From: Terriglobia bacterium
GTDB taxonomy: Bacteria; Acidobacteriota; Terriglobia; Terriglobales; Acidobacteriaceae
Assembly: GCA_020073565.1 (NCBI GenBank)
Contig: JAIQEY010000032.1
Coordinates: 1-64,000, forward strand
DNA length: 64,000 bases
Direction of reading: 5' to 3'
Shown: piece after piece, positions 3,171 to 56,081 of the stretch
How positions within the stretch are numbered: position 1 is the stretch's first letter
How the letters are laid out: every line of letters starts with the position of its first letter
Notes under the pieces: model-generated
Databases searched by the model: none
What the model was told of the DNA's origin: nothing
The model's input: only the letters and a program-made list of their open reading frames with translations
Program-made: the position numbers and the translations under genes

Positions 3171-4055
3171 GTGCAACTGCGCCAGACCCTAAACTCAGCA
3201 ATTGAGCGTTTGACCAACTCGGGCGTTCCCTCCCCGCGGATGAACGCGGAACTTCTCATCATGTTTACGCTCGACTGCGACCGGGCGTATTTGTATGCGC
3301 ATCCGGAGCGGGAGCTGACGTCAGACGAACTGCAGCGCTATGACGAAGCTCTCGCGCGGCGAACTACTGGCATTCCGGCGCAGTACATCACGGGGCATCA
3401 AGAATTCTGGGGGTTGGATTTGATCGTTTCGCCGGCGGTGCTGATTCCAAGGCCGGAGACCGAGCATGTGGTGGAAACCGTGTTGGGGCTGATGTCAAGC
3501 CAGAGTCAAGATCAAAACCAAGATCAAGATCAAAAGCCGCGGACAGGAGTGTCCGCGCCACACATTGTGGATGTGGGGACTGGGTCGGGGGCGATTGCGC
3601 TTGCTCTGGCCAAAGAGCTGCCATCCGCCGAGATCGATGCGACAGACATCTCTGTCGAGGCGCTTGAGGTTGCTCGCGCGAACGCGGCTCGGCATGAGCT
3701 CAGTTCACGGATCAAATTTCACCAGGCGGACCTGCTTACCGGATTGCCACCTAGGGAGTTCGACTTCGTCGTTTCCAATCCTCCCTACGTCGGGGAATCA
3801 GAGGAAGACTCGGTGCAGCTTGAAGTCCGCAAATTCGAGCCGCGGAATGCAGTTTTCGCGGGTCCGACCGGCCTCGAATTGATCGACCGCCTGATTCCTC
3901 AGGCACATGAGGCGCTCAGGCCGGGTGGTTGGCTCGTATTCGAGATCAGCGGAACGATAGCCGATGGCGTCCGCGGGCGGTTATCGAGCTGGACGGATGT
4001 GGAAATTACGAATGATCTGCAAGGAATTGCGCGCGTAATCAGGGCGCGGAAATAA
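3171..4055 (+). CDS. prmC: Release factor glutamine methyltransferase
   Basis: A 294-residue SAM-dependent N5-glutamine methyltransferase (HemK/PrmC) that methylates the GGQ glutamine of release factors. Visible motifs: helical N-terminal substrate domain (1-90), IPRPETE near 92-98, SAM-binding VGTGSG at 135-140 and catalytic NPPY at 203-206. Between RPETE and the SAM loop, where relatives have a short linker, there is an unusual stretch at residues 109-131 (Q/D-rich, then PRTGVSAPH). Its DNA is half of a palindromic repeat found elsewhere in this window, preceded by AAGATC words. The frame is kept and all motifs are intact, so the enzyme is probably functional. The start is GTG at 3171; the preceding 100 bases hold an inverted repeat. 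Confidence 0.95.
   Translation: MQLRQTLNSAIERLTNSGVPSPRMNAELLIMFTLDCDRAYLYAHPERELTSDELQRYDEALARRTTGIPAQYITGHQEFWGLDLIVSPAVLIPRPETEHVVETVLGLMSSQSQDQNQDQDQKPRTGVSAPHIVDVGTGSGAIALALAKELPSAEIDATDISVEALEVARANAARHELSSRIKFHQADLLTGLPPREFDFVVSNPPYVGESEEDSVQLEVRKFEPRNAVFAGPTGLELIDRLIPQAHEALRPGGWLVFEISGTIADGVRGRLSSWTDVEITNDLQGIARVIRARK
3490..3563 (+). repeat. In-frame repeat insertion inside prmC (family A half-palindrome)
   Basis: Positions 3538-3563 match one arm of the palindromes at 27977-28058 and 52425-52500 (core CGCGGACA..TGTCCGCGCCACAC). Before it, about 3490-3536 is built of AAGATC/AAAACC words. The encoded residues 109-131 are absent from what I know of PrmC proteins. Confidence 0.75.
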
Positions 4056-4131
4056 ATCATTTCTTTTCCGGGCCAACAAAGCCGGCGTCCTTCCCGCTGT
4101 TGCATAGACGGCCCCTGGTAGATTTGCGATA

Positions 4132-4587
4132 ATGCAAGGGCTTTTCGGAGTTCGCGCAGTGAGGAGATCCTTTCCGTTTGTCTGGTCAGCTTCCGGAACC
4201 CAACTGGGGCCGCTCGAGCGGCAACTGCTGGAGGCGCTGTGGTCCCGGGGAAGCGCCACGGTTCGCGAACTGCTTGAGGATGAAAAACTCACGCAGGCGT
4301 ACACCACCGTGATGACCACGCTGGACCGTCTCTACAAGAAGCAACTGCTTGATCGGGTCGCCGAGGGCAGAGCATTTCGCTACTCTCCCCGGCAGACTCC
4401 CGAAGAGCTGCGTCGCGTGGCGGCCGTTGAGGGTATCCGTCAATTGCTCGGCTCGGGCGATACCTCGTCGCTTCCACTTTCTTATCTGGTGGAAGCCGTC
4501 GGCACGCACGATGCGCAATTGCTGGATGAGTTGCAGTTGTTGGTCGAACGCAAGCGTCTGGAGCTGAAGAAAGCGGAGCAGGAATAA
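4132..4587 (+). CDS. BlaI/MecI/CopY family transcriptional repressor
   Basis: A 151-residue protein whose residues about 20-95 form the winged helix of the BlaI/MecI family (LGPLERQLLEALW, then AYTTVMTTLDRLYKKQLL, then RAFRYSP). The C-terminal helices would dimerise. Family members bind operators of the linked protease and effector genes and are inactivated by the protease. Its stop codon overlaps the ATG of the following M56 peptidase by one base, the classic repressor-sensor operon arrangement. The first 20 residues are poorly conserved, so a later start is possible. The likely regulon includes its own operon and perhaps the TonB-dependent receptor downstream, which is inference from position only. 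Confidence 0.9.
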   Translation: MQGLFGVRAVRRSFPFVWSASGTQLGPLERQLLEALWSRGSATVRELLEDEKLTQAYTTVMTTLDRLYKKQLLDRVAEGRAFRYSPRQTPEELRRVAAVEGIRQLLGSGDTSSLPLSYLVEAVGTHDAQLLDELQLLVERKRLELKKAEQE

Positions 4588-5522: not shown

Positions 5523-5664
5523 CCGGACGCGTTTACTAGCGCTGGTAGTACCACGCCTTCCCCGTTACATTGCGTTAGCAAGCGTCACCTGATCAATCAC
5601 TTCCTCGTGTGTGGCGTTGGTGGTCGCCCTGGTGCTTGCCAGATGCTGCTTTCGGAGCTTTCTA

Positions 5665-9333: not shown

Positions 9334-9386
9334 TTAGCAATTAGCCTTTAGCACTCAGCTACTAGCTTCTGGCTCCTAGCTTCTAG
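9334..9386. repeat. TAG-word repeat between purL and purF
   Basis: Imperfect tandem copies of (T)TAGCTTCTAGC / TTAGCCTTTAGC fill the whole gap between the two purine genes. The same word family, arranged as a palindrome, follows rplY at 50249-50273, and a fragment lies at 46349-46368. Confidence 0.7.
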
Positions 9387-11731
9387 CCAGCAACGGACGA
9401 ACTTCCCGGCTCTGATTGCAGCGCCCTTTCCAGGGCGCCTTCGTATGCTTCGCGTAACTCAGCGATGCTGGCTGAAATCGTCGGCTGGCCGTTCATCGCG
9501 ATCTCGACCCGGTCGGACACGGTTTCACCTATCACATCCGCCAGCAAGCCGTACTCCACCGCTGTCTGTTGGATTCGCGCCAGCTGATTCGGGTCGCAAC
9601 TCAGCACGATGCGGCTGGCATCTTCTCCAAAGAGCAGGAATTCAGGGGGCAGGAACTGCTCCGCAATATGAACCTTACAGCCCACCCCAGCCGGCAGCGC
9701 CGATTCGGCCAGTGCCACTGCGAGTCCGCCATCGGAGCAATCATGCGCCGACTCGACCAGTCCCGCGCGGATCATCGCTACCAGCGCCCGTTGCAGCGTG
9801 GCTTCCTTTTCAAGATCGAGCTGAGGGGGATAACCCCAGATCGCGCCCAGGACCTCCTTGGCATACTCGGAGGAGCCAAACTCCGACTCGACGTCCACTG
9901 CATCGCCAGCCTCGTTCCCCCGCAGCAGAACGATCTTTTGCCCAGCCTTGGCGAAGTGCATCTTCGCAGTCTTGTGCACGTCCTCGAGAATGCCCACTAC
10001 TCCAATAACGGGCGTCGGATAAATTCCCTCACCCAGAGTCTCGTTGTAGAAACTCACGTTGCCGCCCGTGATGGGAGTATCGAGTTCCTCGCAGGCCTTG
10101 GTCATGCCGTCAATCACCTGCGAGAACTGCCACATGATGTGAGGCTTCTCAGGATTGCCGAAGTTGAGGCAATTCGTCGCACCGACTGGAGTCGCACCGG
10201 CGCAAGCCACCTTGCGAGCGGCTTCCGCGACCGCGTGCATAGCGCCAAGCCGCGGATCGAGATAGCACCAGCGTCCGTTGCCGTCGAGCGCCATCGCGAG
10301 TCCGCGATCGAGACCTTTGATTCGGATCACGCCAGCATCGCCGGCACCAGGCGCCTCGACCGTATTGGTCTGCACCATGTGGTCGTACTGCTGCCACACC
10401 CAGCGTTTCGAGCAGATATTCGGGCTTGCCAGCAACAGTTTGAGTTGCCCGGTGAAATCGCCGCTTTCAACGAGTTGAATGTGCCCCGGCATGTCACGCT
10501 CCACCGGCGGTTCCCAGCGTGCCAGGGGGCGCTTGTAAACCGGCGCGTCGTCGGTGAGGGCAGAGTTCGGAATCTCCGCAACTACGTTGCCGTGCTCCAG
10601 AACGCGCATCTTTGCGTCTCGGGTGACTCGCCCGACCTCGACCGCGTCCAGTCCCCACTTCTGGAACACGCGAAACACTTCGTCTTCGCGGCCCTTTTGC
10701 GCGACCAGCAGCATGCGCTCCTGCGATTCGCTCAACATGATTTCGTAAGGAGTCATGCCGGTTTCGCGCTGTGGAACGCGGTCGAGTTCGATCTCGATGC
10801 CGGTGCCCCCCCGCGCGCCCATCTCGCAAGTTGAACAAGTAAGACCGGCCGCGCCCATATCCTGAATGCCGACAATCGCGCCGGTCTGCATCGCCTCGAG
10901 ACAGGCTTCCAACAGCAATTTTTCGAGGAACGGATCACCAACTTGAACGTTGGGCCGTTTCGCTTCCGATCCTTCGCTGAACTCCTCGCTCGCCATGGTG
11001 GCGCCATGGATGCCGTCGCGTCCGGTCTTGGCGCCGACGTAGATCACGGGATTGCCCTCGCCCGCCGCCCGCGCGTAGAAAATCTGGTTTCGGCGCACCA
11101 GGCCAAGAGCGAATGCGTTCACCAGCGGATTGCCGGAGTAGCAAGGCTCAAACTTTACCTCTCCCCCCAGGTTAGGCACACCAAAACAGTTTCCATAGGA
11201 AGCCACGCCCGAGACGACGCCTTCCATCACGGAATGATTCTTGTGGATCTCAGCTTGTGTGGGGACGGCCGCGCCCGCCCTCGGTCGTCCGGCCGAGCGA
11301 AGCTCGGCAGCTTCAATCGGCCCAAACCGCAGCGAGTCCATCACCGCCACCGGCCGCGCACCCATCGTGAAAATGTCGCGCAGAATCCCGCCCACACCGG
11401 TAGCGGCACCCTGAAATGGCTCAATAAACGACGGATGGTTATGCGATTCGATCTTGAATGCACAGGCCCAGCCGTCACCGATATCAATGATGCCGGCATT
11501 CTCGCCTGGCCCCTGCACGACCAGCTTGCTGCGCGTCGGCAGGCGCTTCAAGTGCACGCGCGAGGACTTGTAGGAGCAGTGCTCGCTCCACATCACGCTG
11601 AAGATGCCGAGCTCGGTCCGCGTGGGTTCGCGTCCACCGAGCAGCTGCTTGATTTTCTCGAATTCGTCAGGCGTGAGACCGTGCTCCCGGATCATCTCGG
11701 GGGTAATGACAAGTATCGCGGTGGTGGTCAT
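9383..11731 (-). CDS. purL: Phosphoribosylformylglycinamidine synthase subunit PurL (small type)
   Basis: A 782-residue synthetase subunit that converts FGAR to FGAM in purine synthesis; at this length it needs separate PurQ and PurS partners, which are not in the window. Motifs: [10 protein letters not shown] at 49-58, [17 protein letters not shown] near 86-101 and [16 protein letters not shown] near 114-129. Between SLRFG (133-137) and the conserved [13 protein letters not shown] block (169-181) is an extra segment, about residues 142-160, encoded by a palindromic repeat (11254-11308) also seen before xseA and der. The reading frame continues across it and later motifs are intact. ATG at 11731; the gene is first in a purL-purF unit. 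Confidence 0.96.
11254..11308 (-). repeat. In-frame repeat insertion inside purL (family C)
   Basis: Contains GCCGAGCgaaGCTCGGC (11292-11308), then GGAC and GGCGGnCGTCCC-type halves, matching the element at 59337-59384 upstream of xseA and the fragment at 54594-54612 upstream of der. It encodes an extra loop of about 19 residues in PurL. Confidence 0.7.
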
Positions 11732-12821: not shown

Positions 12822-14714
12822 ATGAAGTCGGTCATCGTAGGTACCGCCGGACACATCGATCACGGCAAAACTTCGCTGGTCAAAGCCCTGACCGGCATCG
12901 ATGCCGACCGCCTCGAAGAAGAAAAACGCCGCGGCATCACCATCGATATCGGATTTGCACACCTCGAATTACCCGCGCCCAACGGCGAAACGCTGCGCCT
13001 CGGTTTTGTCGATGTCCCCGGCCACGAGCGCTTCGTCCGCAACATGCTTGCGGGGGTCGGCGGCATCGACCTCGTGGTGCTCGTCATTGCTGCCGATGAA
13101 GGCATCAAGCCGCAGACCCGCGAACACTTTGATATCTGCCGCCTGCTGGCAGTCCGGCGCGGGATGACCGTCTTAACCAAATCCGACGCGGTGGACCGCG
13201 ACACGCTCGAAGTCGTGCGTCTGGAGGTGGAAGACTTTTTACGAGGCTCGTTTCTCGATCCCACCAGTTCGCCTATCGTAGCCGCCAGTTCGCTGACCGG
13301 CGCCGGTCTTGATGAAGTGAAGAAGGCGCTCGCCAAAATCGCATCCGAGGTCACCACAAAAGACTCGACCGCCCTTGCCCGCCTCCCGATCGATCGCGTC
13401 TTCACCATGAAAGGTTTCGGGACCGTTGTAACTGGAACGCTGGTGTCGGGAACGGTCCGGAGGGAAGAAGAACTCGAAGTTTTCCCCGGCCGCAAGCGCG
13501 TCCGGGTGCGTGGCGTGCAAGTGCATGGTTCATCGTCCGACGAGGCTATAGCCGGACAACGCACCGCGCTGAACCTCGCCGGAGTGTCTACCGAAGACTT
13601 GGCACGCGGGATGACGTTGGCGAACATCGACACTTTTCGTTCCACCACACGCGTCGACACGTTGCTTTCTCTACTTCCCACCGCCAAGCCGCTCAAAGAA
13701 GGAGCACGCGTTCACTTCCACGCCTACACGATGGAGACGATCGTCGAAGCGAGGCTGTATGGAGCGAAAGAACGGAAGCCGGGCGAGGAGGCCTACGCGC
13801 AGTTACGATTGGCCGAGCCTGCATTGGTGTTGCCAGGCGACCGCTTCATCCTGCGCCAGCTTTCCCCCGTCGTTACGATTGGAGGCGGAGTTGTTCTGGA
13901 CGCCCTCCCTCCCGCCCGCAAACGCTCACCGGAAGTGGCCGCCGCATTTCTAAAAGTCATGAGGGAAGGCTCTCCACTGGAGATGCTCTCCGCGCGTGTG
14001 GCGAGGCGAGGCGCGACGGGGTTGCCCTTACAGGATCTACCCACCGAGATGAATCTGAGGCAGCAAGATGCCGCGAAACTGACGGCACCGGCCGGACTCC
14101 AATGGTGCAATCAGATCCTTGTTTCCCAGGTCGCTTTTGCCCAGGCCAAGGCCGACGTTGTGAAGATCGTCCAAGCATTTCACGATGTGAACCCCTTGGT
14201 TTCCGCGATCAGCAAGGAAGAGTTGCGTGACCGCTCGAACCTTGGCTCCGACGTTTTCTACGCGGTGCTCGCCAAGCTGGCCGAAGAAAAAAAGCTCGAG
14301 ATCGCCGGAGAACAAGCCCGCATCCCCGGCCGTGGCGTGGTCATGAAAGACGAGGAATCGGAATCAAAGAAAATTATCGAGCAGGCTTTCGCTTCCGCAG
14401 GGTTGAAAGTGCCGTCGCTGAAAGAAGTGTTGTCAGGGCTGAAAGTGGATAAACTGCGGGCCCAGAAGATTGTCACGCTTCTGCTCCGCGACAAAGTTCT
14501 GATCAAGATTTCCGAGGAACTCGTCTTTCACCAGAACGCGCTCGCGGATCTTCGTCAGAAGATCACAGCACTCAAGAGCGCAACTCCAAGAATTGACGTG
14601 GCTCGCTTCAAAGACCTGACCGGAGTAACCCGCAAATACGCAATCCCGTTGCTCGAATACTTGGATCGGGAACGAGTGACGCGGCGGGTAGGCGACGAGA
14701 GAGTCATTCTTTAA
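12822..14714 (+). CDS. selB: Selenocysteine-specific elongation factor SelB
   Basis: A 630-residue translational GTPase that delivers Sec-tRNA to UGA codons marked by a SECIS hairpin. The G domain starts at once: [11 protein letters not shown] at 7-17 (G1), [14 protein letters not shown] (G2), DVPGHERFV (G3) and TKSD (G4). Beta-barrel domains follow, and the last roughly 200 residues form the winged-helix domains that bind the SECIS element, which separates SelB from EF-Tu. ATG at 12822 is preferred over the upstream in-frame start at 12774 because homology begins here. No selA, selD, tRNA-Sec or selenoprotein is in the window, so selenocysteine use is implied but not shown. The TAA stop is formed by the start of the palindromic repeat that follows. 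Confidence 0.93.
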
Positions 14715-14800
14715 CCACAGAGGACACAGAGTTCCACAGAGGAACATCGCAAACGCAGGTAGGTCGCCTTCCTCTGTGATCCCCTGTGTCCTCTGTGGTT
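14713..14800. terminator. Perfect 17-bp inverted repeat between convergent selB and AhpD-like gene (family D)
   Basis: AACCACAGAGGACACAG (14713-14729) is exactly complementary to 14784-14800. The outer ends read TTAACC and GGTTAG, so the element supplies the TAA stop of selB and, on the other strand, the TAA stop of the AhpD-like gene. A run of six T follows the right arm. It looks like a two-way terminator. The same word family occurs at 36853-36888 and inside der (55163-55212). Confidence 0.75.
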
Positions 14801-15326
14801 AGATTTTTTCTTCCGGAAATTCCAGCGGCAGATCCAGGGGCCCTGTGACCCGATTCGTCAGATTCGCCAGACCGATCAGCATGTGCAGGTCAACGATCTG
14901 CTCGTCAGAGAAATGCTTCTTAAGTTCCGAGAAGTCGGCATCCGTAGCCCCATCCGGAGTGCGCGTGAGTTTTTCCGTATAGCGCAGCGCAGCTTGCTCT
15001 TTCTCGCCAAACGACGAGTAGTTGCCCGCTTTGAGCATCTTCATCTCATCCGGCGTCAATCCGGCACGCTTGGCTCCCTGAATGTGGTGCTGCGTGCAAT
15101 AGTGACATCCATTGATCAGCGAAGTGCGAAGGTAAACCGCCTCATACAATTTGCGTTCGAGCGAGCGCCCCACGTTCGCATAAGAGCTCAGAAAGGTGCC
15201 AAGCATCGCAGGCCGGTGAGCCAGCGCCTTCTGAATGCTGCCGGGCTTGCCCTTGAGCTTCCCGTCGTAGATCTCTTTCACTTCCGGGCTGGCGTGCTCC
15301 GGTTCAATCAAGCTGATGCGTGCCAT
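14799..15326 (-). CDS. Carboxymuconolactone decarboxylase / AhpD-like protein
   Basis: A 176-residue all-helical protein of the AhpD-like superfamily. The core motif is NGCHYCTQHHIQGAKRAG with Cys74 and Cys77 (CxxC) and nearby histidines, the redox centre of alkylhydroperoxidase-like members. The later segments FGEKEQAALRYTEKLT and LIGLANLTNRV are typical of the peroxidase-related subgroup, which probably reduces peroxides or alkyl hydroperoxides in the cytoplasm. ATG at 15326 is chosen because an AGGAGG site lies 7 bases upstream and homology starts at MARISLIEP, although the frame is open to 15512. It converges on selB. The substrate cannot be told. Confidence 0.88.
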   Translation of the reverse strand: MARISLIEPEHASPEVKEIYDGKLKGKPGSIQKALAHRPAMLGTFLSSYANVGRSLERKLYEAVYLRTSLINGCHYCTQHHIQGAKRAGLTPDEMKMLKAGNYSSFGEKEQAALRYTEKLTRTPDGATDADFSELKKHFSDEQIVDLHMLIGLANLTNRVTGPLDLPLEFPEEKI

Positions 15327-15386: not shown

Positions 15387-16787
15387 ATGAATCGCGTTCG
15401 AATTATCGGGGCGGGTCTGGCTGGATCGGAGGCCGCATGGCAATGCGTGCGCCGCGGCGTTCCCGTCGATCTGTTCGAGATGCGCCCCGTGCGGACGACT
15501 CCCGCTCATCAAACAGCGGAGTTCGCGGAACTGGTTTGCTCGAACTCGCTCAAGTCTGACAGCGAAAACACCGCTCCCTGGCTGTTGAAAGAGGAAATGC
15601 GGCGTGCCGGATCACTGCTGCTGGAAATCGCACGCGAAACCTCAGTTCCTGCTGGACATGCCCTGGCGGTCGATCGCCGTGAGTTTTCCCGCAAAGTGAC
15701 GGAGGCAATCGCTCGCGAGCCGCTGATCAACGTCCGGCGGGAAGAAGTGGCGCAAATCGACGACGGCCAGATCACCGTCATTGCCACCGGGCCCCTCACC
15801 TCGGACGCACTGTCGGCGGAGATCCAGAGGTTGAGCTTGTCTCCTCCATCGGAAGGAGAGAGCACTTCAGACCTTTCGCGGGCAGGAGTGCCCGCGCCAC
15901 ACAACCTGTATTTCTACGATTCCATCAGCCCCATCGTCGAAGCCGACTCCATTAACATGGACCGGGTGTACATGGCCGCCCGCTACGACAAAGGCTCAGC
16001 CGACTACATCAACTGCCCCATGTCTAGGGAAGAGTACGACGCGTTCTATGATGCGCTGCTCGCTGCGCAGTCCGTGGAAGGAAAAGAGTGGGAGAAACTG
16101 AATTACTTCGAAGGCTGTCTGCCCATCGAAGAGATTGCCCGCCGCGGCCGCGACACGTTGCGCTTCGGCCCGATGAAACCAGTCGGCCTGATCAACCCGC
16201 GCACCGGCAAGATGCCCTACGCCGTCGTGCAACTTCGCCAGGAGAACCTGCGCGCCGATTCTTACAACCTCGTCGGCTTCCAGAATCACCTCAAGTTCGC
16301 CGAGCAGGCACGAGTGCTCCGCCTGATCCCCGGCCTCGAAGACGCCCGCTTTCTGCGCTACGGCCAGATCCACCGCAATACGTACATCAACGCTCCCACT
16401 CTGCTGACCGCAACGCTGCAAATGAAGCAACATCCGCGCACGCTGTTTGCCGGCCAGATTTGTGGAGTCGAAGGCTATGTTGAATCGATTGCCACCGGAC
16501 TGATGGCGGGCGTCCATGCGGCGGCTCTGGCGTCGGGCAGCGAGCCTGTGCCCCCGCCGCGCGCAACGGCATTCGGAAGTCTCATGCACTACATCACGCA
16601 AGCCGACGCGAAGAACTTTCAGCCCGCTAACATCACCTTCGATCTGCTGCCCGCGCTGGCAACGCGGATTCGTGACCGCAAGGAGCGCCATCGCCAGCAA
16701 TGCGAATGGGCTCTCGGCGAGTTCGCCCGCTGGCTCAGCCAGCTTCGCGACATACCCATCCCGCCGCCCGCGGAAGTTCCTGCTTGA
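15387..16787 (+). CDS. trmFO: FAD- and folate-dependent tRNA (uracil-54) C5-methyltransferase
   Basis: A 466-residue flavoprotein that makes ribothymidine at position 54 of tRNA using methylene-tetrahydrofolate. FAD-binding GAGLAGSE is at 8-15, the conserved ELVCSNSLKSD block puts one catalytic cysteine at residue 51, and FEGCLPIEE puts the other at 244. The spacing of 193 exceeds the 173 I recall for B. subtilis (Cys53/Cys226). The excess of about 20 fits an extra segment at residues 151-172 just before LYFYDSISPIVEA, whose DNA (15877-15902) is a family A repeat arm. The frame is intact. ATG at 15387, 60 bases from the divergent AhpD-like gene. Confidence 0.96.
   Translation: MNRVRIIGAGLAGSEAAWQCVRRGVPVDLFEMRPVRTTPAHQTAEFAELVCSNSLKSDSENTAPWLLKEEMRRAGSLLLEIARETSVPAGHALAVDRREFSRKVTEAIAREPLINVRREEVAQIDDGQITVIATGPLTSDALSAEIQRLSLSPPSEGESTSDLSRAGVPAPHNLYFYDSISPIVEADSINMDRVYMAARYDKGSADYINCPMSREEYDAFYDALLAAQSVEGKEWEKLNYFEGCLPIEEIARRGRDTLRFGPMKPVGLINPRTGKMPYAVVQLRQENLRADSYNLVGFQNHLKFAEQARVLRLIPGLEDARFLRYGQIHRNTYINAPTLLTATLQMKQHPRTLFAGQICGVEGYVESIATGLMAGVHAAALASGSEPVPPPRATAFGSLMHYITQADAKNFQPANITFDLLPALATRIRDRKERHRQQCEWALGEFARWLSQLRDIPIPPPAEVPA
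15838..15902 (+). repeat. In-frame repeat insertion inside trmFO (family A half-palindrome)
   Basis: 15877-15902 reads CGCGGGCAGGAGTGCCCGCG followed by CCACAC, the same arm as in prmC, moeA and the intergenic palindromes. With the preceding bases it encodes residues 151-172, ending in GVPAPH; in prmC the matching residues end in GVSAPH. Confidence 0.78.
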
Positions 16788-27310: not shown

Positions 27311-27994
27311 TTACCCACGCAGCGCGGACTCTTCTTTCCTCGCTGCGTTTTTTCTTTTAGTCACCAGCCGCCACACGATCCAGGCCGCTACGATTTCTGC
27401 CACAATCGCCAGAATCCAGAACAAATGATGCGTCAGCAGATTCCCGGTCAGTGCGACGATGCCCGGCCCAAACCACAGCGTCAGCATCGCCTCGATCAGA
27501 AACCGCAAGAAACGCCCCGCAAAGATTGCCAGCAGAAAATGCGTGAAGCGCATCTCAAACGCCGCCGCCGCCAGCACAAAGATCTTGAACGGGGTCGGAG
27601 GCGGCAGCATGGCCGGAAACATCAGCGCCCAGAATTCATGCTTGTCGAACGAGGCGTGAATTTTTTCGAAGCGCTCGGGCGATAGCCGCTTGCGCAGCAG
27701 CACCTCACCGCCCGTGTATCCAACCACGTAGAGAACAATGCTGCCCAGCGCCGACCCCACCGCGCCGAGCAGAGCATAAAGCCAGAAGCGGGAGCGATCG
27801 TGGTACACGTAGCCCACAAAGATCGCATCCAGCGGCATGCCCAGAAACGAGCCATCGACCGCCGCAAACGCAAGCATCCCCCAGGGCCCAAGCGGAGCCA
27901 GCACGGCTTTAATCCACTCGCTATAGGAGTGCAGAAAATGTTTGAGCTTGTTCAAGAATGCACTAGCAGTGTACAGGTAGTGTGGCGCGGACAC
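27311..27994 (-). CDS. DedA/VTT (SNARE-associated) family membrane protein
   Basis: A 227-residue inner-membrane protein with the VTT-family core: WGMLAFAAVDGSFLGMPLDAI, an amphipathic loop FEKIHASFDKHEFWALMFPAM and LPPPTPFKIFVLAAAAFEM, which contains the conserved proline-rich re-entrant hairpin, then further membrane helices. Such proteins are linked to lipid scrambling or flipping and envelope homeostasis. The start is doubtful: GTG at 27994 lies inside a palindromic repeat (family A), so the first 13 residues would be repeat-encoded; TTG at 27955 is an alternative. The gene is followed on the same strand by no close partner. Confidence 0.82.
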   Translation of the reverse strand: MSAPHYLYTASAFLNKLKHFLHSYSEWIKAVLAPLGPWGMLAFAAVDGSFLGMPLDAIFVGYVYHDRSRFWLYALLGAVGSALGSIVLYVVGYTGGEVLLRKRLSPERFEKIHASFDKHEFWALMFPAMLPPPTPFKIFVLAAAAFEMRFTHFLLAIFAGRFLRFLIEAMLTLWFGPGIVALTGNLLTHHLFWILAIVAEIVAAWIVWRLVTKRKNAARKEESALRG

Positions 27995-28058
27995 TCTTGT
28001 CCGTGTGTTTGCAGTGCGCAGGCGGTCCGCGCGAACAAGAGTGTCCGCGCCACACTAC
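27977..28058. repeat. Complete family A palindrome, 24-bp perfect stem
   Basis: 27977-28000 and 28035-28058 are exact reverse complements (GTAGTGTGGCGCGGACACTC and four more bases), with a 34-base spacer. One outer end provides the TAG stop of mogA (28055-28057) and the other contains the GTG that starts the VTT-family frame. A near-identical copy is at 52425-52500; in-frame relatives lie in moeA, trmFO and prmC. Confidence 0.85.
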
Positions 28059-29834: not shown

Positions 29835-31127
29835 TCATGCCGTCAACAAGGAGACCCACTCGCCCGCGGCGATCTGCTCGCGATCGGGTGGGATCACCAG
29901 AAAGCAGTTGGCGCGAGCCAGAGCGGCGATGTCTCCGGAGCCTTGCCAGGCAGCTAGTTCGACTTCCACATTCTCGAATTCTCCGGACAGCACGGCTGGC
30001 AGAAACCGCCTCAGCCCGGTTTTTGTGCGGATCTTGGACTTCAGCCGAGCCTTCAAAAAGATCAGCGGCTGAGGTTTCATGCCGGCCAGAGCGGCAATCA
30101 TCGACTGCGCGAAAAGCCTGAACGTCACCATGGTCGAAACGGGGTTCCCGGGGAGACCGAAGAAGTATTTCTTGTGTGGTGCGGGCATTTCTGCCCGCGC
30201 CAACTGCGGATTTGCTGCCAACACGCGGGCAGGAATGCCCGCGCCACACGAACCAAAGACGATCGGCTTACCGGGCTGAATCTTTGCTCCGGTGAAGTAG
30301 AACTCGGCTTTCCGTTCTGTCAGCACCTGCTCTACCAGGTCATACTTGCCCATCGAGACTCCGCCAGTCAGTAGAAGCAGATCGCACGTCAGACCTTCTT
30401 CGATCAGCGCCCGCAGGCGAACAGGCTCGTCGGGCGCTATGGGAAGCCTTATCGCCTCGCCGCCTGCGTGCTCGATCTGCGCGGCCAGTGAATAGGTATT
30501 CGAATTTCGAATCTGCGCTGGACCGGGCGTCGCTCCAATCTCTACAACTTCGTCTCCGGTGGAAAGCACCGCCACCCGCGGTTTCCGGAATACCGGCAGC
30601 GTGCTGGTACCCGCCGACGCTGCGATGGCGATGGCCGCATGGTCCAGTCTCGTTCCGCGATCGACAAGCAGGTGGCCTTGGCGTGCTTCGGCTCCGCGTG
30701 GAACGAAGTTTTCGCCGCGTTGCACGCTGCGTTGAATATCGACTGACTTCCCTGCGACCGCCGTGTATTCGACCATCACGACCGCGTCCGCACCCGCCGG
30801 CAGCGGTGCGCCGGTCATGATCGAGACGGTTTGTCCAACGCCGACGGTGCAGGTTCCGGGTTCGGGCCAATCGCCCGCCCGGATTTCACCCACCAGTTCG
30901 AGCCGCTTGGGGACCTGTTCCACGTCTGCGGCACGAACTGCGTAACCGTCCCGCGTGGCGCGGGGGAAAGGAGGGAAGTCGCGATCCGCCACGATCGGCT
31001 CGGCCAGCACTCGTCCCGCCGCTGCCAGAAGATCGACCCTTTCGACTTCTCCTGGGGCGACCTTCGCCGCGTGCTGCTCCACGGTGTGCCGCGCTTCTTC
31101 AAAGGTCACGATGCTGGCTGAAGACAT
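29835..31127 (-). CDS. moeA: Molybdopterin molybdenumtransferase MoeA
   Basis: A 430-residue enzyme that inserts molybdate into adenylated molybdopterin. Motifs: FPRATRDGYAV near residue 54, IMTGAPLPAGADAVVMVE near 104, RVAVLSTGDEV near 186, LLLTGGVSMGKYD near 256 and GLPGNPVSTMVTF near 323. Between KIQPGKPIVFGS and KKYFFGLPGNPVS, where relatives have only a few residues, there are 25 extra residues (294-318), encoded exactly by a 75-bp palindromic repeat at 30174-30248. All conserved motifs remain in frame, so the protein should fold with a surface loop. ATG at 31127 matches the family start. First gene of the moeA-moaC-regulator-mogA run. Confidence 0.95.
   Translation of the reverse strand: MSSASIVTFEEARHTVEQHAAKVAPGEVERVDLLAAAGRVLAEPIVADRDFPPFPRATRDGYAVRAADVEQVPKRLELVGEIRAGDWPEPGTCTVGVGQTVSIMTGAPLPAGADAVVMVEYTAVAGKSVDIQRSVQRGENFVPRGAEARQGHLLVDRGTRLDHAAIAIAASAGTSTLPVFRKPRVAVLSTGDEVVEIGATPGPAQIRNSNTYSLAAQIEHAGGEAIRLPIAPDEPVRLRALIEEGLTCDLLLLTGGVSMGKYDLVEQVLTERKAEFYFTGAKIQPGKPIVFGSCGAGIPARVLAANPQLARAEMPAPHKKYFFGLPGNPVSTMVTFRLFAQSMIAALAGMKPQPLIFLKARLKSKIRTKTGLRRFLPAVLSGEFENVEVELAAWQGSGDIAALARANCFLVIPPDREQIAAGEWVSLLTA
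30174..30248 (-). repeat. Complete family A palindrome inserted in frame in moeA (75 bp, 25 codons)
   Basis: Left arm 30174-30199 (GTGTGGTGCGGGCATTTCTG and six more) pairs with right arm 30224-30248. It covers residues 294-318 exactly, beginning with C and ending PAPH. Intergenic relatives at 27977 and 52425 differ mainly by GGACA against GGGCA in the stem, with compensating changes on the other arm. Confidence 0.88.
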
Positions 31128-31229
31128 GCAGAAATCATACCCTGCGAGACTTCGCCTAAGAGCATGGTTCAGTATCGCGGAACGCAACGGGTATTTCGCT
31201 CGTCAATCGTTTTGTCCAGCCTTGACCGG

Positions 31230-36889: not shown

Positions 36890-37597
36890 CTACACGCCTT
36901 TGGCGGCGGGGTCCCAGATCAGTTTGTGGATTTGCAGGCTTAGGCGGGCCGGGAGATTGTCGGCCACGATCCAGTCGGCGAGTTCCTGCGGATCGAGAAG
37001 GCAGTGAGATGTGTCTCGCGCTCCTGAAGCTTCTTTCGCGAAGGCCGGGGAGAACAGGATCGCGTGGACGCGCGCGGGAAGTTCGTGGCGGCGAATGAAG
37101 TCGCGTGCGAACTCGTAGTCGGTGCGGTCGGTCAGGACGAACTTGAGTTCATCGTGAGGCTGGAGAGATTCGAGATTCTCCTCCGCAAAGGTGTCGGGCT
37201 CGCCGGAGTGGGGGCATTTCACGTCGACGATTTTGATGACTGCCTCCGGCACGCGAGCGAGCGGACGTTCGCCGCTGGTTTCGAGCAGAACTTGGTATCC
37301 GGCTTCGAGCAGGCGCTCCATCAGGGGGACGACTTCGCGCTCCTGCAGCATGGGTTCACCACCGGTGATTTCGACTAAAGGACCGGGGTGGGCAGAAATG
37401 CGCGCCTCACACGGGCTCAGGCGCATGACTTCGCTGAGGACTTCCTGCACCGCCATCTTGTGGCCGCCATAGAAACTGAATTCGCTGTCACACCAGGAGC
37501 AGCGGAGATTGCATCCGGTGAGGCGGACGAAGACACAGGGGAGGCCAGCGTGGGTGGATTCGCCTTGGAGTGATTTGTAGATTTCGGTTACTTGCAT
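36890..37597 (-). CDS. queE: 7-carboxy-7-deazaguanine synthase
   Basis: A 235-residue radical-SAM enzyme that converts carboxytetrahydropterin into 7-carboxy-7-deazaguanine. The cluster motif is C29, C33 and C36 (CNLRCSWC, Cx3Cx2C) followed by DSEFSFYGG, and the substrate/SAM motif VEITGGEPMLQ is near residues 71-81. The N-terminus YKSLQGESTHAGLPCVFVRL is typical. ATG at 37597. It lies 80 bases upstream of queD's stop-to-start gap, which is filled by a TTTCTGG word repeat, and downstream of queD, so the transcription order is queD, queE, queC. Confidence 0.96.
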   Translation of the reverse strand: MQVTEIYKSLQGESTHAGLPCVFVRLTGCNLRCSWCDSEFSFYGGHKMAVQEVLSEVMRLSPCEARISAHPGPLVEITGGEPMLQEREVVPLMERLLEAGYQVLLETSGERPLARVPEAVIKIVDVKCPHSGEPDTFAEENLESLQPHDELKFVLTDRTDYEFARDFIRRHELPARVHAILFSPAFAKEASGARDTSHCLLDPQELADWIVADNLPARLSLQIHKLIWDPAAKGV

Positions 37598-46457: not shown

Positions 46458-47195
46458 ATGAAGCGTGTGTTTATCATCGTCGTCCTGCTCGGTGGCTTGG
46501 GCAGGATGGCCGCCGATATAGCCTCGCAATACGGCCGGATCTGGGAGATCAAGAAATCCACCTCCAGCTACACGAAGACCTGGGTGGCAAACACCCCGAT
46601 CATGGAAGAAGTCACAACCTACACAATTTCGGTTCAGGTCGGGAAAGCGTTGCTGGTCGGGACCTATGACATCTCTGAGCAGCAGCCTCAACCGCCTCCG
46701 GACTGGGGCAAGGGCTACGCGGTGAAGGTGCAAGAAGAGGGCGATTTACTGTCCGTGCGATCGGTGACGGGCCAGTTGCGGCTCCATCTCAAGCAGCGTA
46801 AGACGGGAAAGCCGATGGACCCGCTCGCCGCCGCGGAGAAGAAACGGCTGGATGAACTGGACGCTCCGCTGCAATCGCTGATCGGCTTCTCATCGGAAGG
46901 CAGTTCGAAGGGCGGAAGCGCGAAGGGAGCTTCTCAGGCCGCTTCCGAACCGGCACCACCAGCGCCATCACCCGCGCCGCTGGCCACGGGAACGGTGACC
47001 GTGCGCTCCACGCCGTACCTGTCGGAAGTGTTTGTGGACGGCGAATCGATGGGATACACGCCGGCCAAGATCGCGCTGCCCCCTGGCAAACACACGTTCC
47101 GTGTCGAAAAACCCGGCTACAAGCCGTGGACCAAAGAGATGACGATTACAGGAGGCTCGGACCTTACGCTGGACGCGAGTCTCGCGAGGAAGTAG
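46458..47195 (+). CDS. Exported PEGA-domain protein
   Basis: A 245-residue protein with a short hydrophobic N-terminus (KRVFIIVVLLGGLGRMAA), a middle beta domain that contains YTISVQVGKALLVGTYD and GYAVKVQEEGDLLSVRS, an Ala/Pro/Ser linker (about 150-178) and a C-terminal PEGA domain (GTVTVRSTPYLSEVFVDGES, then MGYTPAKIALPPGKHTFRVEKPGY). PEGA domains are surface beta modules of unclear ligand. It is the only gene between the divergent E1-beta gene and ispE; a family B repeat follows the stop at 47196-47223. Confidence 0.83.
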   Translation: MKRVFIIVVLLGGLGRMAADIASQYGRIWEIKKSTSSYTKTWVANTPIMEEVTTYTISVQVGKALLVGTYDISEQQPQPPPDWGKGYAVKVQEEGDLLSVRSVTGQLRLHLKQRKTGKPMDPLAAAEKKRLDELDAPLQSLIGFSSEGSSKGGSAKGASQAASEPAPPAPSPAPLATGTVTVRSTPYLSEVFVDGESMGYTPAKIALPPGKHTFRVEKPGYKPWTKEMTITGGSDLTLDASLARK

Positions 47196-47223
47196 GACGT
47201 GCGGGCACGCCCGTCGCTCTATC
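47196..47223. repeat. Family B short palindrome after the PEGA gene
   Basis: GACGTGCGGGCACGCCCGTC followed by GCTCTAT, starting directly after the TAG stop of the PEGA gene. Same family as the in-frame segment of ispE (47817-47843). Confidence 0.65.
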
Positions 47224-47256
47224 AAGTAAATCTAAATCGCTTACAATTCCTCCTTC

Positions 47257-48255
47257 ATGACAGTTGCGGTGCGGTCGTTTGCCAAGATTAATCTCGGGCT
47301 GTACCTCGGACGTGTGCGGGCAGATGGCTTTCATGATCTGCGCACGGTCTATCAGACGATTGCATTGCACGACGTCATTCGGGTGACGGTGGGACGCGGG
47401 AGCGGAATTGAGATCCTGTGCGAAAACCCGCGCGTTCCACGTGATTCGTCGAACACTTGCTATCGCATGGCCGAGCGGGTGATGGATGAGTTGGGGGGGA
47501 AAGGCAAAGTCACCGTCGCAATCGAGAAGCGGCTGCCGGTGCAGGCCGGGCTGGGGGCGGCTTCGTCGAATGCGGTGGCTACGATGATTGGGCTGGAACG
47601 GGGGTTGAAGAAATCTCTCCCGGGTGCAACCAGATTGCGCATTGCTGCCGAGGTCGGGTCGGATCTTCCCCTTTTCTTGGTTGGCGGGACGGTGCTGGGG
47701 GTGGGGCGGGGGGAGGAAGTTTATCCGCTGCCGGATTGGGGGGCTGCGCCGATGGTAGTGGTCATGCCGGAGATGGGGGTTTCGACGCCCCGGGCGTTTG
47801 CGGATTGGGACGCGCTGACGGGCGAGGGCGCCCGTCGCTCCATTGAGAATCATGAATTGACGCAGTCTGGTGCGTCCGATAGACTGTTGGAGGTTGGCCG
47901 CGTGCTTGCTTCGTGGCTGAGTGATTTACCTAACACCGGTGCTCCTGCAAAAGGTTGGAGCCGGGCCGGGAGCCTGCTTCTCGACCTTGTCCGTACCGGG
48001 ATTGAAAACGACTTTGAAAAAGTCGTTTTTCCGCAACATCCCGAATTGCGTGACATAAAACTTGCGCTGGAACGCGCGGGGGCTCGATACGCTTCGCTCT
48101 CTGGATCAGGGTCAGCCCTGTACGGACTGTTTCGTTCGCCCGCCGAGGCGCGGAAAGCCGCCGGCCGCCTGCAGAAGCAGGGTGTGAAGGCAGTGGCGAC
48201 GAGTACGTTGACGCGTCCGCATTATTGGCAAAGGTTTCTAGTTTCTGGTTGCTAG
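47257..48255 (+). CDS. ispE: 4-diphosphocytidyl-2-C-methyl-D-erythritol kinase
   Basis: A 332-residue GHMP kinase of the MEP isoprenoid pathway. Motifs: AVRSFAKINLGLYLGRVRADG at the N-terminus, the ATP loop PVQAGLGAASSNAVA near residues 99-113, and SLSGSGSALYGLF near 286-298. About 20-30 residues longer than usual. Residues 187-196 (TGEGARRSI) come from a 27-bp family B palindrome in frame, and the C-terminal FLVSGC with its TAG stop is read from the TTTCTGGTTGCTAG word repeat that follows. The ispE, tRNA-Gln, prs, rplY, pth order is a known bacterial neighbourhood. Confidence 0.94.
   Translation: MTVAVRSFAKINLGLYLGRVRADGFHDLRTVYQTIALHDVIRVTVGRGSGIEILCENPRVPRDSSNTCYRMAERVMDELGGKGKVTVAIEKRLPVQAGLGAASSNAVATMIGLERGLKKSLPGATRLRIAAEVGSDLPLFLVGGTVLGVGRGEEVYPLPDWGAAPMVVVMPEMGVSTPRAFADWDALTGEGARRSIENHELTQSGASDRLLEVGRVLASWLSDLPNTGAPAKGWSRAGSLLLDLVRTGIENDFEKVVFPQHPELRDIKLALERAGARYASLSGSGSALYGLFRSPAEARKAAGRLQKQGVKAVATSTLTRPHYWQRFLVSGC
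47817..47843 (+). repeat. Family B palindrome in frame inside ispE
   Basis: GACGGGCGAGGGCGCCCGTC followed by GCTCCAT, 27 bp, the same element as the intergenic copy before rpsR (51426-51451). It encodes TGEGARRSI in a variable loop. Confidence 0.6.
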
Positions 48256-48379: not shown

Positions 48380-48455
48380 GTTCTCGGTTCCCCGTTCTCA
48401 GTTCTCAGCGAGAACCGGAGCCAAAACTGAGAACTGAGAACCGGGGACTGAGAAC
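48380..48455. repeat. Inverted word repeat GTTCTCAGTTCTCAG (family G) between tRNA-Gln and prs
   Basis: Arms 48380-48408 and 48427-48455 are complementary at 26 of 29 positions. The hairpin ends 6 bases before the prs ATG and could affect its translation. Confidence 0.78.
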
Positions 48456-51425: not shown

Positions 51426-51451
51426 GACGGGCGAGACGCCCGTTTCTCCAT
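51426..51451. repeat. Family B short palindrome between rpsF and rpsR
   Basis: GACGGGCGAGACGCCCGTTT followed by CTCCAT; GACGGGCG pairs with CGCCCGTT. It lies 19 bases before the rpsR ATG, just upstream of AAGGAGC. Confidence 0.7.
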
Positions 51452-51470
51452 CAGAAAGTTAAGGAGCATT

Positions 51471-51839: not shown

Positions 51840-51865
51840 TTCGGTTTTAGAAAAGATCAAAGGTT

Positions 51866-51939
51866 CCTTCGTGTACCTTCGTGCCCTTGGTGGTTTAGAA
51901 GAAAGCGTCAACCACCACGGGCACGAAGGTACACGAAGG
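51866..51939. repeat. 30-bp inverted repeat (CCTTCGTGTACCTTCGTGCC type, family J) between rpsR and rplI
   Basis: Arms 51866-51895 and 51910-51939 are complementary at 29 of 30 positions, with a 14-base loop. Each arm is itself built of CCTTCGTG words. Such a stable stem inside a ribosomal protein operon may attenuate or process the transcript. Confidence 0.82.
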
Positions 51940-51962
51940 GGACCCAAGAAGACGGAGCCATC

Positions 51963-52418: not shown

Positions 52419-52424
52419 CGGCTT

Positions 52425-52500
52425 GTGTGGCGCGGACACTCTTGTCCGCGTGTCGGCAGTGCATGAACAGTCCGCGCGGACAAAAGTGTCCGCGCCACAC
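52425..52500. repeat. Complete family A palindrome between rplI and the helicase gene
   Basis: Arms 52425-52450 and 52475-52500 (26 bases, one mismatch) with a 24-base loop. Nearly identical to 27977-28058. It sits between two convergent genes, 5 bases before the helicase stop codon, and may terminate both. Confidence 0.83.
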
Positions 52501-52505
52501 GGCTA

Positions 52506-54548
<2,043 letters not shown>

Positions 54549-54593
54549 CGAGTATCTATAATACAGTTCGCAGCTACGCGGACCGCAGAGATC

Positions 54594-54612
54594 AGCCGGC
54601 TGTCCCTACGTG
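54594..54612. repeat. Family C fragment upstream of der
   Basis: AGCCGGCTGTCCCTACGTG matches the right end of the element before xseA (59337-59384). It ends 14 bases before the der start codon. Confidence 0.6.
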
Positions 54613-54626
54613 AGCATTTCCAATTC

Positions 54627-56081
54627 ATGAATTCGAGATCCACCACGGAAACCTCTGTCCTTCCCCTGCTTGCGATCGTGGGCCGGCCCAACGTCGGCAA
54701 ATCTACGCTCTTCAACAAGCTGACGGGGTCGCGGCGCGCCATCGTGGGCGATGAGTCTGGCATCACGCGCGACCGCCTCTATGGCGAGGCCGAGTGGCGC
54801 GGGCACGAGTTTCGCGTTGTGGATACCGGCGGCATCGTTCCCGACGACAAGGACTTCATACCGTCGGAAATTTTCCGCCAGGCCAAGGTCGCGTTTGAAG
54901 AAGCGGCGGGCATCATCATGGTGGTCGATGCCCGCACCGAAATCGCCGGACCCGATCGTGAGTTGGCGAGATTACTTGCCCGCACTGGGAAACCTCTCTT
55001 TCTCGCCGTCAACAAGATGGACTCGGACAAGCAGGACTCTTTGATTGGCGAATTCCATTCACTCGGAATTCGGAATGTATTTCCGGTATCGGCTGAGCAC
55101 GGACGCGGCATCGACGATTTGCTTGATGCCGTGCTTCTGGTGCTGCCTGCCGCCAAAGAGCCAACCACAGAGGACACAGAGATCACAGAGATCACAGAGG
55201 AAGGCACAGAGGCCTCTTCCTCAACTCCCGACGAGCCACATGAAATCAAAGTCGCCATCATTGGCCACCCTAACGTCGGCAAGTCCACGCTGCTGAACCA
55301 GCTCACCGGCAAGTCGCGCGCCATCGTCTCGCCGATTCCAGGCACTACGCGCGATTCGGTCGACGAAGTCGTTCGCTACCACGACCGCGATATTCGTTTC
55401 ATTGATACGGCCGGGATCCGCCGCAAGGGCAAAACGAGGGCGATGGCCGAGAAGCTTTCCGTGGTCTTTTCGCGCAAGAGTATCGAAGATGCTGACATCG
55501 TGCTCTTCATGATCGACGCCACTGAAGGCGCCAGCGGCCTGGACGCGAACATTGCCGGCTACGCGCACGAGAGCGGGCGGTCCGTCATTATCCTCGTTAA
55601 CAAATGGGACCTGGTGGCGAGCGGCGAGAAGCGGGCCATCAGCCAGTCGAAGGCCGCGCGGATTCAGGATGCCAAGCGCCCTCATGATCGCGCTCTGTAC
55701 GAGCAGCGCCTGCGCTACGGGCTCAAATTTCTCAGCTACGCCCCGGTGCTCTTCCTCTCCGCGCACACCGGAACGGGGACCGACAAGATTCTCCCGCTGA
55801 TTGAAAGAGTGGCGGCCGAGCGGCGGAAACGCATCACGACCGGCGAGATGAATCGCTTCCTGAAGAAGGTAGATTTTGACCGCGCCTCGGTTCCGGTAAG
55901 CAAGCGGGTAAAGATTCTCTACATGACACAGGCGGGTGTGGCGCCGCCCACGTTTGTGCTGTTCACAGACCGGGCCGTAAAGCTGCATTTTTCCTACCAG
56001 CGGTTCCTCGAAAACCAGATTCGGCACGTGTTTGGATTCATGGGGACGCCGATCTGGATTAAGAATCGGTCGCGGGACTGA
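54627..56081 (+). CDS. der: Ribosome assembly GTPase Der (EngA)
   Basis: A 484-residue protein with two G domains in tandem and a C-terminal KH-like domain, needed for 50S subunit maturation. First G domain: GRPNVGKST near residues 20-28, DTGG and NKMD. Second: GHPNVGKST near 216-224, DTAGIRRKGKT and NKWD. The linker between them holds TTEDTEITEITEEGTEA (residues 179-195), encoded by tandem CACAGAG words (55163-55212) of the family D repeat. The linker is naturally variable, so function should be kept. ATG at 54627 lies just before the homology; the frame is open upstream to 54531. Confidence 0.95.
   Translation: MNSRSTTETSVLPLLAIVGRPNVGKSTLFNKLTGSRRAIVGDESGITRDRLYGEAEWRGHEFRVVDTGGIVPDDKDFIPSEIFRQAKVAFEEAAGIIMVVDARTEIAGPDRELARLLARTGKPLFLAVNKMDSDKQDSLIGEFHSLGIRNVFPVSAEHGRGIDDLLDAVLLVLPAAKEPTTEDTEITEITEEGTEASSSTPDEPHEIKVAIIGHPNVGKSTLLNQLTGKSRAIVSPIPGTTRDSVDEVVRYHDRDIRFIDTAGIRRKGKTRAMAEKLSVVFSRKSIEDADIVLFMIDATEGASGLDANIAGYAHESGRSVIILVNKWDLVASGEKRAISQSKAARIQDAKRPHDRALYEQRLRYGLKFLSYAPVLFLSAHTGTGTDKILPLIERVAAERRKRITTGEMNRFLKKVDFDRASVPVSKRVKILYMTQAGVAPPTFVLFTDRAVKLHFSYQRFLENQIRHVFGFMGTPIWIKNRSRD
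55163..55212 (+). repeat. In-frame CCACAGAGG/ATCACAGAG repeat inside der (family D)
   Basis: AACCACAGAGGACACAGAGA then three further ACAGAG units. The first 17 bases are identical to the arm of the inverted repeat at 14713-14729. Read in frame it gives TTEDTE-type acidic repeats. Confidence 0.75.

What the first reader, a model, noticed from the sequence alone, without database searches (positions are those of the whole stretch)
3490..55212. Seven housekeeping proteins carry segments encoded by short repeat families
prmC (3490-3563), purL (11254-11308), trmFO (15838-15902), moeA (30174-30248), ispE (47817-47843), the Rad3/DinG helicase (53351-53377) and der (55163-55212) each contain, in frame, a member of a repeat family that is also intergenic in this window. 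Four unrelated families (A, B, C, D) do this, in both orientations relative to the genes. This suggests continuous creation of new protein loops from spreading palindromes, filtered by selection for open frames. I regard this as the main candidate for an undescribed system.
Basis: partly seen in the sequence, partly recalled or inferred. Interest (0 to 1): 0.85.

Follow-up and report, generated by a model that had tools for sequence, protein, structure and literature searches.

The report
Mobile palindromes inside essential protein loops
In a group of soil Acidobacteria, short palindromic DNA repeats that are scattered through the genome also sit in frame inside loops of essential enzymes, and related species carry different repeats in the same loop; this kind of event is already known from Rickettsia and a few other bacteria, but here it is unusually varied and recurrent.

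Summary
All seven proteins contain a segment related to a dispersed repeat, but only part of the prmC and trmFO stretches is repeat, dinG is a weak match and purL a diverged composite. I count three superfamilies in the window (A; K/L; C), not four. In 1.65 Mb (27%) of the genome, 15 repeat profiles find 34 strong elements inside 26 called genes (priA, trmD, ddl and others) and 355 outside or at gene edges: per base, 48-fold rarer in coding DNA. In relatives, 82 of 179 distinct orthologous loops carry a recognisable repeat; upstream, downstream and reversed controls give 0 of 179 each, codon-shuffled 1 of 895. The same loop holds different families in different species (prmC, dinG, purL). In trmFO, 25 of 77 loops are short and repeat-free. 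The frames used encode fewer hydrophobic residues than other open frames (p = 0.002), suggesting a peptide-level filter. The elements are REP/REPIN-like. Some repeat types flank RAYT transposase genes in this genome; A and K/L, the commonest inside genes, do not. It works like Rickettsia palindromic elements and published intragenic REPs: a multi-family variant, not an undescribed system.

The parts
3171..4055 (+). prmC ORF (294 aa) carrying a REP-derived loop
   Evidence: TIGR03534, E 5.7e-81; matches in 23 of 24 genus genomes, some fragmentary
3538..3563 (-). family-A REP, translated ...PRTGVSAPH
   Evidence: profile hit +29 above the reversed control
9383..11731 (-). purL ORF (782 aa)
   Evidence: NF002290; 21-residue gap in PDB chain 3viu_A at the loop
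11254..11313 (-). diverged composite K/L-type element in the purL loop; sister species G010 has family A at this site
   Evidence: blastn best E 5e-8 to intergenic copies; no profile hit; G010
15387..16787 (+). trmFO ORF (466 aa)
   Evidence: NF003739; residues 153-180 have pLDDT under 50 in a model of mean 67
15877..15902 (-). family-A REP, translated SRAGVPAPH
   Evidence: +25; short 13-aa loop without repeat in 25 of 77 relatives
29835..31187 (-). moeA ORF (450 aa)
   Evidence: MoeA-type NCBIfam matches, below the equivalog cut-offs; 25 query residues against 2 in the solved MoeA 2nro_A at the loop
30174..30249 (.). complete family-A REPIN (30174-30199 + and 30224-30249 -, 24 nt between) at a strand-turn-strand position of MoeA
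   Evidence: +19 and +25; covariation; between strands 309-314 and 340-344 of a low-confidence model
47257..48255 (+). ispE ORF (332 aa)
   Evidence: TIGR00154 above its cut-off
47817..47844 (-). family-L (K/L) element, translated TGEGARRSI
   Evidence: +16
52506..54548 (-). dinG/yoaA helicase ORF (680 aa)
   Evidence: NF053712
53351..53378 (-). decayed family-L element, translated HRAPGAPVRR; in G010 the site also carries an M-type element
   Evidence: +0.4; blastn E 0.003
54531..56081 (+). der ORF (start may be 54627)
   Evidence: TIGR03594; gene-caller start 54627
55163..55212 (+). family-C element (ACCACAGAGGACACAGAG type) in the linker between the two GTPase domains, translated TTEDTEITEITEE
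   Evidence: 55163-55191 +11
   Evidence: +3.5; Pfam Radical_SAM; 37 nt against 13 other nt in G010
27980..28055 (.). family-A REPIN outside the named genes, reference copy
52425..52500 (.). family-A REPIN between genes, reference copy
47195..47256 (.). intergenic stretch with a K/L-type copy next to ispE
   Evidence: blastn hit from the dinG element
59316..59407 (.). intergenic stretch with a K/L-type copy
   Evidence: blastn hit from the purL element, E 9.8e-5

Best explanation
The segments are copies of REP/REPIN-type mobile palindromes that insert around the genome. Some families are probably moved by RAYT (Y1/HUH) transposases, which this genome encodes. Most copies that land inside genes are lost by selection. 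Copies survive when the net length change is a multiple of three, when the site is a tolerant surface loop or inter-domain linker, and when the frame used encodes a hydrophilic peptide. Such a loop then stays permissive, so later elements insert beside, into or in place of earlier ones, and orthologous loops in congeners end up holding different families. Hairpin arms of older copies can stay matched despite divergence, perhaps because template switching across the hairpin, or replacement by another copy, corrects them. Shown: identity to dispersed repeats, in-frame position, repeat-free orthologous loops, different families at one site, depletion in genes, the frame bias, and RAYT genes flanked by some families. 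Inferred: transposition as the entry route (no donor-target event was seen, and A and K/L have no visible cognate), template switching, and neutrality of the added peptides.
For: Genome sample: 444 elements in 1.65 Mb = 360 intergenic, 28 at gene edges, 56 in genes; strong only, 34 in 26 called genes against 355 elsewhere (330 intergenic, 25 edge), 2.5 against 120 per 100 kb. Loops in relatives: 82 of 179 distinct non-own loops with a family; controls 0, 0, 0 of 179 and 1 of 895. A separate blastn test gave 82 of 173 against 0 in four controls, duplicates counted. On a species tree the recognised labels need at least 5 changes at prmC, 3 at dinG, 1 at purL and 1 at ispE, combined labels counted as their own state. 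Repeat-free loops. Coding indel clusters between window and G010: 13 of 13 net multiples of three against 15 of 37 outside genes. Frame bias: hydrophobic fraction 0.133 against 0.206 in other open frames, Wilcoxon p 0.0023 per element and 0.0034 per gene. Strong single A copies: 8 of 8 genes in the orientation opposite to the gene. RAYT-type genes with inverted flanking repeats: B at L009, D/E at L003, L005, L007, O-like at L001. REPIN geometry: 9 of 10 close A pairs inverted.
Against: No RAYT in this MAG is immediately flanked by A or K/L; the nearest are an A copy about 0.5 kb from the L008 gene and an L copy about 1.3 kb from the L003 gene. Several of the nine Y1_Tnp matches look truncated or interrupted (L006 has an internal TAA; L009 continues in another frame). 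No target-site duplication or excision footprint was established. 55 of 77 trmFO loops (25 of them the short form), 9 of 15 purL, 7 of 10 der, 10 of 18 dinG and 8 of 18 ispE loops of relatives carry no recognised family. By profile, moeA shows family A only (16 of 20), which fits one old insertion, although blastn finds another repeat there in G005 and G001. The weak A copy at 37387 has the other orientation. Expression was not tested. The data are MAGs; the window's own has 6% estimated contamination.
Confidence: 0.8

Rival explanations
1. One old insertion per site followed by divergence: each loop received one REP in the ancestor, and the different 'families' are diverged descendants kept palindromic by compensatory change.
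For: moeA holds family A in 16 of 20 relatives, mostly at constant length. Arms of nine moeA REPINs co-vary: 7 cells changed on both sides, 0 of 500 shuffles as high.
Against: prmC, dinG and purL loops contain families with unrelated arms and different lengths, each matching dispersed copies. In prmC of G016 a P element sits inside an A element. 25 of 77 trmFO loops are short and repeat-free. In one search the number of further pair types is no higher than in shuffles (337 of 500).
Confidence: 0.15
2. The intragenic copies are kept because the DNA or RNA hairpin has a function (mRNA stability, protein binding, translation pausing), not because the loop merely tolerates them.
For: Well-matched hairpins with differing arms are found in many of the loops (a best-hairpin search without shuffled control), and moeA shows compensatory changes.
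Against: 48-fold depletion in genes. Repeat-free orthologues of the same genes exist. The frame bias acts on the peptide.
Confidence: 0.12
3. The added peptides are adaptive: some loops gained a function and are positively selected.
For: RTGVSAPH-like and TGAPAR-like peptides recur in different genes; trmFO and moeA inserts are found over many species.
Against: Recurrence follows from using the same element in the same frame. Loop sequence and length vary freely between congeners, and the loop is modelled with very low confidence in TrmFO.
Confidence: 0.05
4. Artefact: pseudogenes, misassembly or chance similarity.
For: MAG data; window genome 6% contamination estimate; gene calls in the 1.65 Mb come from a simple caller of mine.
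Against: Inserts at the same sites in many MAGs with different accession series; conserved ORFs on both sides; controls near zero.
Confidence: 0.02

Closest known systems
Rickettsia palindromic elements (RPE) and their Wolbachia counterparts
   Same: Dispersed palindromes found both between genes and in frame inside unrelated, often conserved proteins; for gmk the product is translated and active, with changed substrate affinity (review PMC2229807, passages read; the original papers were seen only as its references).
   Different: Here an uncultured soil Acidobacteriota lineage with a 6 Mb GC-rich genome, at least eight repeat groups inside genes, units of about 25-80 nt, and different families at one site. 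No sequence comparison with RPEs was made.
Intragenic GTAG/CGTC-tagged REPs (PMC3733652, 2013; passages and the whole of section 15 read; supplements not seen)
   Same: REPs, often dimers, lying entirely inside ORFs and encoding about 20-30 aa; many in DNA repair genes; different REPs at about the same site of recB in X. campestris and X. oryzae; loops and linkers suggested as tolerant sites.
   Different: In the text I read, recB is the one such site coincidence; here several loops hold different families across a genus, with repeat-free loops, a frame bias and near-zero controls. Family A has a GTGTGG head, not GTAG. Koribacter (Acidobacteria) appears there for three TIRYT genes and one TIR family; section 15 names no intragenic elements for it.
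REPIN/RAYT systems (PMC3116915, 2011; search listing only)
   Same: Inverted REP pairs with a short spacer, dispersed copies, RAYT-type genes flanked by repeats (B, D/E).
   Different: No cognate RAYT seen for families A and K/L in this MAG.
Bacterial MITEs with fused ORFs (ERIC, RU, NEMIS; review PMC2229807, passages read)
   Same: Small non-autonomous mobile sequences fused in frame to proteins.
   Different: Terminal inverted repeats with target duplications were not tested here.

Membership tests
REP/REPIN elements | Short (20-40 nt) imperfect palindrome in many dispersed copies, mostly intergenic | tested here: met
   118 A matches genome-wide; 360 of 444 elements intergenic; 8-nt arms, mean 7.2 of 8 paired in 43 intergenic A copies
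REP/REPIN elements | Inverted pairs with short spacer | tested here: met
   9 of 10 close family-A pairs inverted, spacer 22-46 nt
REP/REPIN elements | GTAG (or CGTC) tag at one end | tested here: inconclusive
   Family B: GTAG nearly invariant in 41 copies; K: mostly GTAG in 20; family A: GTGTGG instead, 49 copies. CGTC was not tested
REP/REPIN elements | Cognate RAYT gene flanked by the repeat | tested here: inconclusive
   B on both sides of L009 (gene apparently frame-shifted); D/E on both sides of L003, L005, L007 and on one side of L004 and L006; O-like palindromes around L001; M-like at L008; none immediately beside A or K/L
Protein-coding palindromes of the RPE kind | Same element both intergenic and in frame inside conserved proteins | tested here: met
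   34 strong elements in 26 called genes; Pfam domains for host genes outside the seven
Protein-coding palindromes of the RPE kind | Orthologues without the insert are otherwise collinear | tested here: met
   trmFO 25 of 77 short loops; solved homologues of MoeA, TrmFO, PurL and PrmC have shorter loops there; moeA of G004 69 nt shorter, possibly by deletion
Protein-coding palindromes of the RPE kind | Sequence homology to an RPE/WPE family | not tested
   No RPE sequence was compared
Protein-coding palindromes of the RPE kind | Insert translated and enzyme active | not testable with these tools
   needs proteomics and enzymology
MITE | Terminal inverted repeats and target-site duplication | not tested
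   No recent filled/empty pair at strain level was available

The most novel reading that the evidence does not exclude
In this Acidobacteriota genus a few dozen loops in essential enzymes act as reusable landing sites: successive, unrelated families of mobile palindromes are inserted, swapped and nested there, their hairpins are kept matched by template switching, and the genome thereby keeps rewriting the surface of its housekeeping proteins by a process distinct from point mutation.
Probability: 0.35. Interest if true: 0.78.

Novelty: new variant of a known kind. Interest (0 to 1): 0.55.

Why it matters
How new protein segments arise is usually studied from ancient alignments. Here the donor repeats are still identifiable, repeat-free loops exist, and the same loop holds different repeats in species after species, so the filter (length, frame, peptide chemistry, site) can be measured directly. 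It also warns annotators that repeat-encoded peptides such as RTGVSAPH or AELRSAG are not conserved motifs.

Tried and rejected
Four unrelated families in the window: reduced to three superfamilies, since K and L profiles mostly hit the same elements. Stop codons as the main filter: rejected. Known structured RNA: Rfam finds only a tRNA in the window. A cognate RAYT for families A or K/L: looked for beside nine Y1_Tnp matches, none immediately flanking. AlphaFold of MoeA was poor (mean pLDDT 50.6) and is used only for the strand-turn-strand position; TrmFO has mean pLDDT 67 with other stretches under 50 besides the loop. A k-mer search with too high a cut-off gave nothing and was replaced. A first profile scan of 864 kb with a looser threshold gave 59 coding and 255 intergenic hits, many of the coding ones chance-like; one search supersedes it.

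Losses before counts: one search cut 173 loops from 202 locus entries tried (der 1 of 19, its anchor failed); one search cut 190 from 211 entries (der 11 of 21); the rest had fragmentary genes or missed anchors. include a few second matches of one gene; removes identical loops (190 to 186) and own copies (to 179). The tree is midpoint-rooted, has several weakly supported nodes, and der gave it only 5 columns; combined labels (such as A+P) count as separate states. The own-genome sample is made of long contigs, not drawn at random. The best-hairpin search lists only loops above a cut-off and has no shuffled control. The two-frames-of-six probability was chosen after seeing the data and is not used. 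The preference of strong coding A copies for the GGGCA core (6 of 10 against 8 of 43, p 0.014) is unexplained. In one search two of five measures do not clearly exceed the shuffles (pairs with a change on both sides 29 of 500; further pair types 337 of 500).

That intragenic repeats of this kind in Acidobacteria are not in print rests only on searches of open-access PMC papers.
Full report
What was checked. The window is G000:C78:1-64000 of a 6.1 Mb, 123-contig genome. The seven ORFs match housekeeping protein models.

The repeats are real and dispersed. Family A (GTGTGGCGCGGACA..TGTCCGCG) has 118 genome-wide matches with up to one mismatch and none for the reversed pattern. Two complete inverted pairs of 76 nt lie in the window, and 9 of 10 close A pairs in the sample are inverted, spacer 22-46 nt. 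This is REPIN geometry.

Genome-wide count. I took 1,654,900 bases of the same genome (27%, long contigs), called 1,234 genes with a simple codon-usage caller, and trained 15 repeat profiles on non-coding DNA. Each threshold was set above the best score on the reversed sequence. Of 444 elements, 360 are intergenic, 28 touch a gene edge and 56 lie inside genes. Keeping those at least 5 bits above threshold leaves 34 in 26 genes against 355 elsewhere (330 intergenic, 25 edge): 2.5 against 120 per 100 kb, a 48-fold depletion. Hosts outside the window include PriA, an RNB-domain (RNase R-like) protein, TrmD, a D-Ala-D-Ala ligase, UbiD, an ABC transporter (between its two domains), a HemN-like enzyme and a molybdopterin dehydrogenase. 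The window is enriched: 5 such genes in 64 kb against 21 in the rest.

Per-gene check in the window. prmC, trmFO, moeA, ispE and der are strong. dinG is only just above threshold and has a blastn match of E 0.003 to an intergenic stretch. purL fails the profiles but matches 13 intergenic segments below E 0.001, best 5e-8, as a composite K/L-type element. A decayed A copy sits in a further gene, 36890-37597.

Comparison with relatives. Loops were cut out between conserved anchors in orthologues from the genus and from 80 trmFO loci. By blastn against own intergenic DNA (154 kb), 82 of 173 loops matched at E < 0.001; upstream, downstream, codon-shuffled and reversed controls gave 0 each. With the profiles, 91 of 190 matched, own loops included, and the four controls gave 0. 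After removing identical loops and own copies, 82 of 179 matched; upstream, downstream and reversed gave 0 of 179 each and codon-shuffled 1 of 895. The same loop holds different families: prmC has A, K/L and P, alone or combined; dinG has K/L, M/N or both; purL has A or K/L; trmFO mostly A, with single loops of K/L, M/N and A+M/N+O. In the sister species G010 the purL site has family A where the window has the K/L-type element, and the dinG site has an extra M-type stretch. On a tree from concatenated proteins the recognised labels need at least 5 changes at prmC, 3 at dinG, 1 at purL and 1 at ispE; moeA, trmFO (14 species) and der need none. Some of these are gains of a second element, since combined labels count separately. 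In prmC of G016 a P element sits inside an A element, still in frame.

Sites without repeats. In trmFO, 25 of 77 loops are 13 aa between anchors and none of these carries a family; 46 are 20 aa or longer and 22 of those do. In moeA, G004 is 69 nt shorter with the same flanking bases, but it keeps TGTGGC, the start of the REP, so it may be a deletion and not the original empty site. Solved homologues of MoeA, TrmFO, PurL and PrmC have shorter loops at these places. So the segments are insertions, but not every long loop is a recognisable repeat.

The filter. Between the window and the syntenic G010 contig (72-87% identical by block), 13 of 13 coding indel clusters are net multiples of three against 15 of 37 outside genes. 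Most alternative frames of the strong elements are open, so stop codons filter little. The frames actually used have a lower hydrophobic fraction than the other open frames (0.133 against 0.206, p 0.0023; per gene p 0.0034; Monte Carlo p 0.002). Strong single family-A copies are opposite to the gene in 8 of 8 genes (binomial p 0.008); the decayed copy at 37387 is in the other orientation. This points to selection on the peptide and indirectly to translation.

Hairpins inside genes. A best-hairpin search finds well-matched stems with differing arm sequences in many of the coding loops; it has no shuffled control. In nine moeA REPINs, seven cells show changes on both sides of a pair (0 of 500 shuffles as high) and the covariation score is exceeded by 1 of 500 shuffles and by no slid version; the number of such pairs (29 of 500) and of further pair types (337 of 500) is less telling. 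Relatedness can inflate this, so it is suggestive only. Template switching as a source of compensatory hairpin change is published (PMC8794818, opening of the abstract seen in the listing). Replacement by another copy would do the same.

How they move. The own genome has nine Y1_Tnp matches. L009 has family-B repeats, with a near-invariant GTAG head, on both sides in inverted orientation, though the gene seems frame-shifted; L003, L005 and L007 have inverted D/E repeats on both sides, L004 and L006 on one side; L001 lies between O-like palindromes, and L008 among M-like repeats. Families A and K/L, the commonest inside genes, have no immediately flanking RAYT in this MAG. Entry by transposition is therefore inferred for them.

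Compared with what is known. In-frame palindromes in proteins were described in Rickettsia (Ogata and others 2000, seen as cited in the review PMC2229807, passages read). REPs inside genes of several species were described in 2013 (PMC3733652, passages and section 15 read), including different REPs at about the same site of recB in two Xanthomonas species. The present case works like those. It differs in lineage, in the number of families, and in the different fillings of the same loops across a genus. I file it as a new variant of a known kind.

Noticed in passing
window 33371-34519: A type II/IV secretion ATPase-like gene carries a 96-nt in-frame segment absent from G010 that I did not recognise as one of my repeat families.
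   Followed up: no
L246 (G016 prmC): Nested element: family P inside family A, reading frame still open.
   Followed up: partly
L003, L005, L007, L009 (own genome): RAYT-type genes with inverted repeats on both sides (D/E or B), that is, REPtron-like loci; L009 looks frame-shifted.
   Followed up: partly
own genome sample: Strong family-A copies inside genes more often have the GGGCA arm than intergenic ones (6 of 10 against 8 of 43, p 0.014); unexplained.
   Followed up: no
window 48380-48455, 51866-51939, 14712-14801: Other inverted pairs built from low-complexity units (GTTCTCAGTTCTCAG, CCTTCGTGTACCTTCGTG, CCACAGAGGACACAGAG types), also dispersed in the genome sample.
   Followed up: partly
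window 9383-56081: purL and der are about 6-15 kb apart in seven congeners but about 43 kb apart in the window genome and 37 kb in G010, so this region was rearranged.
   Followed up: no
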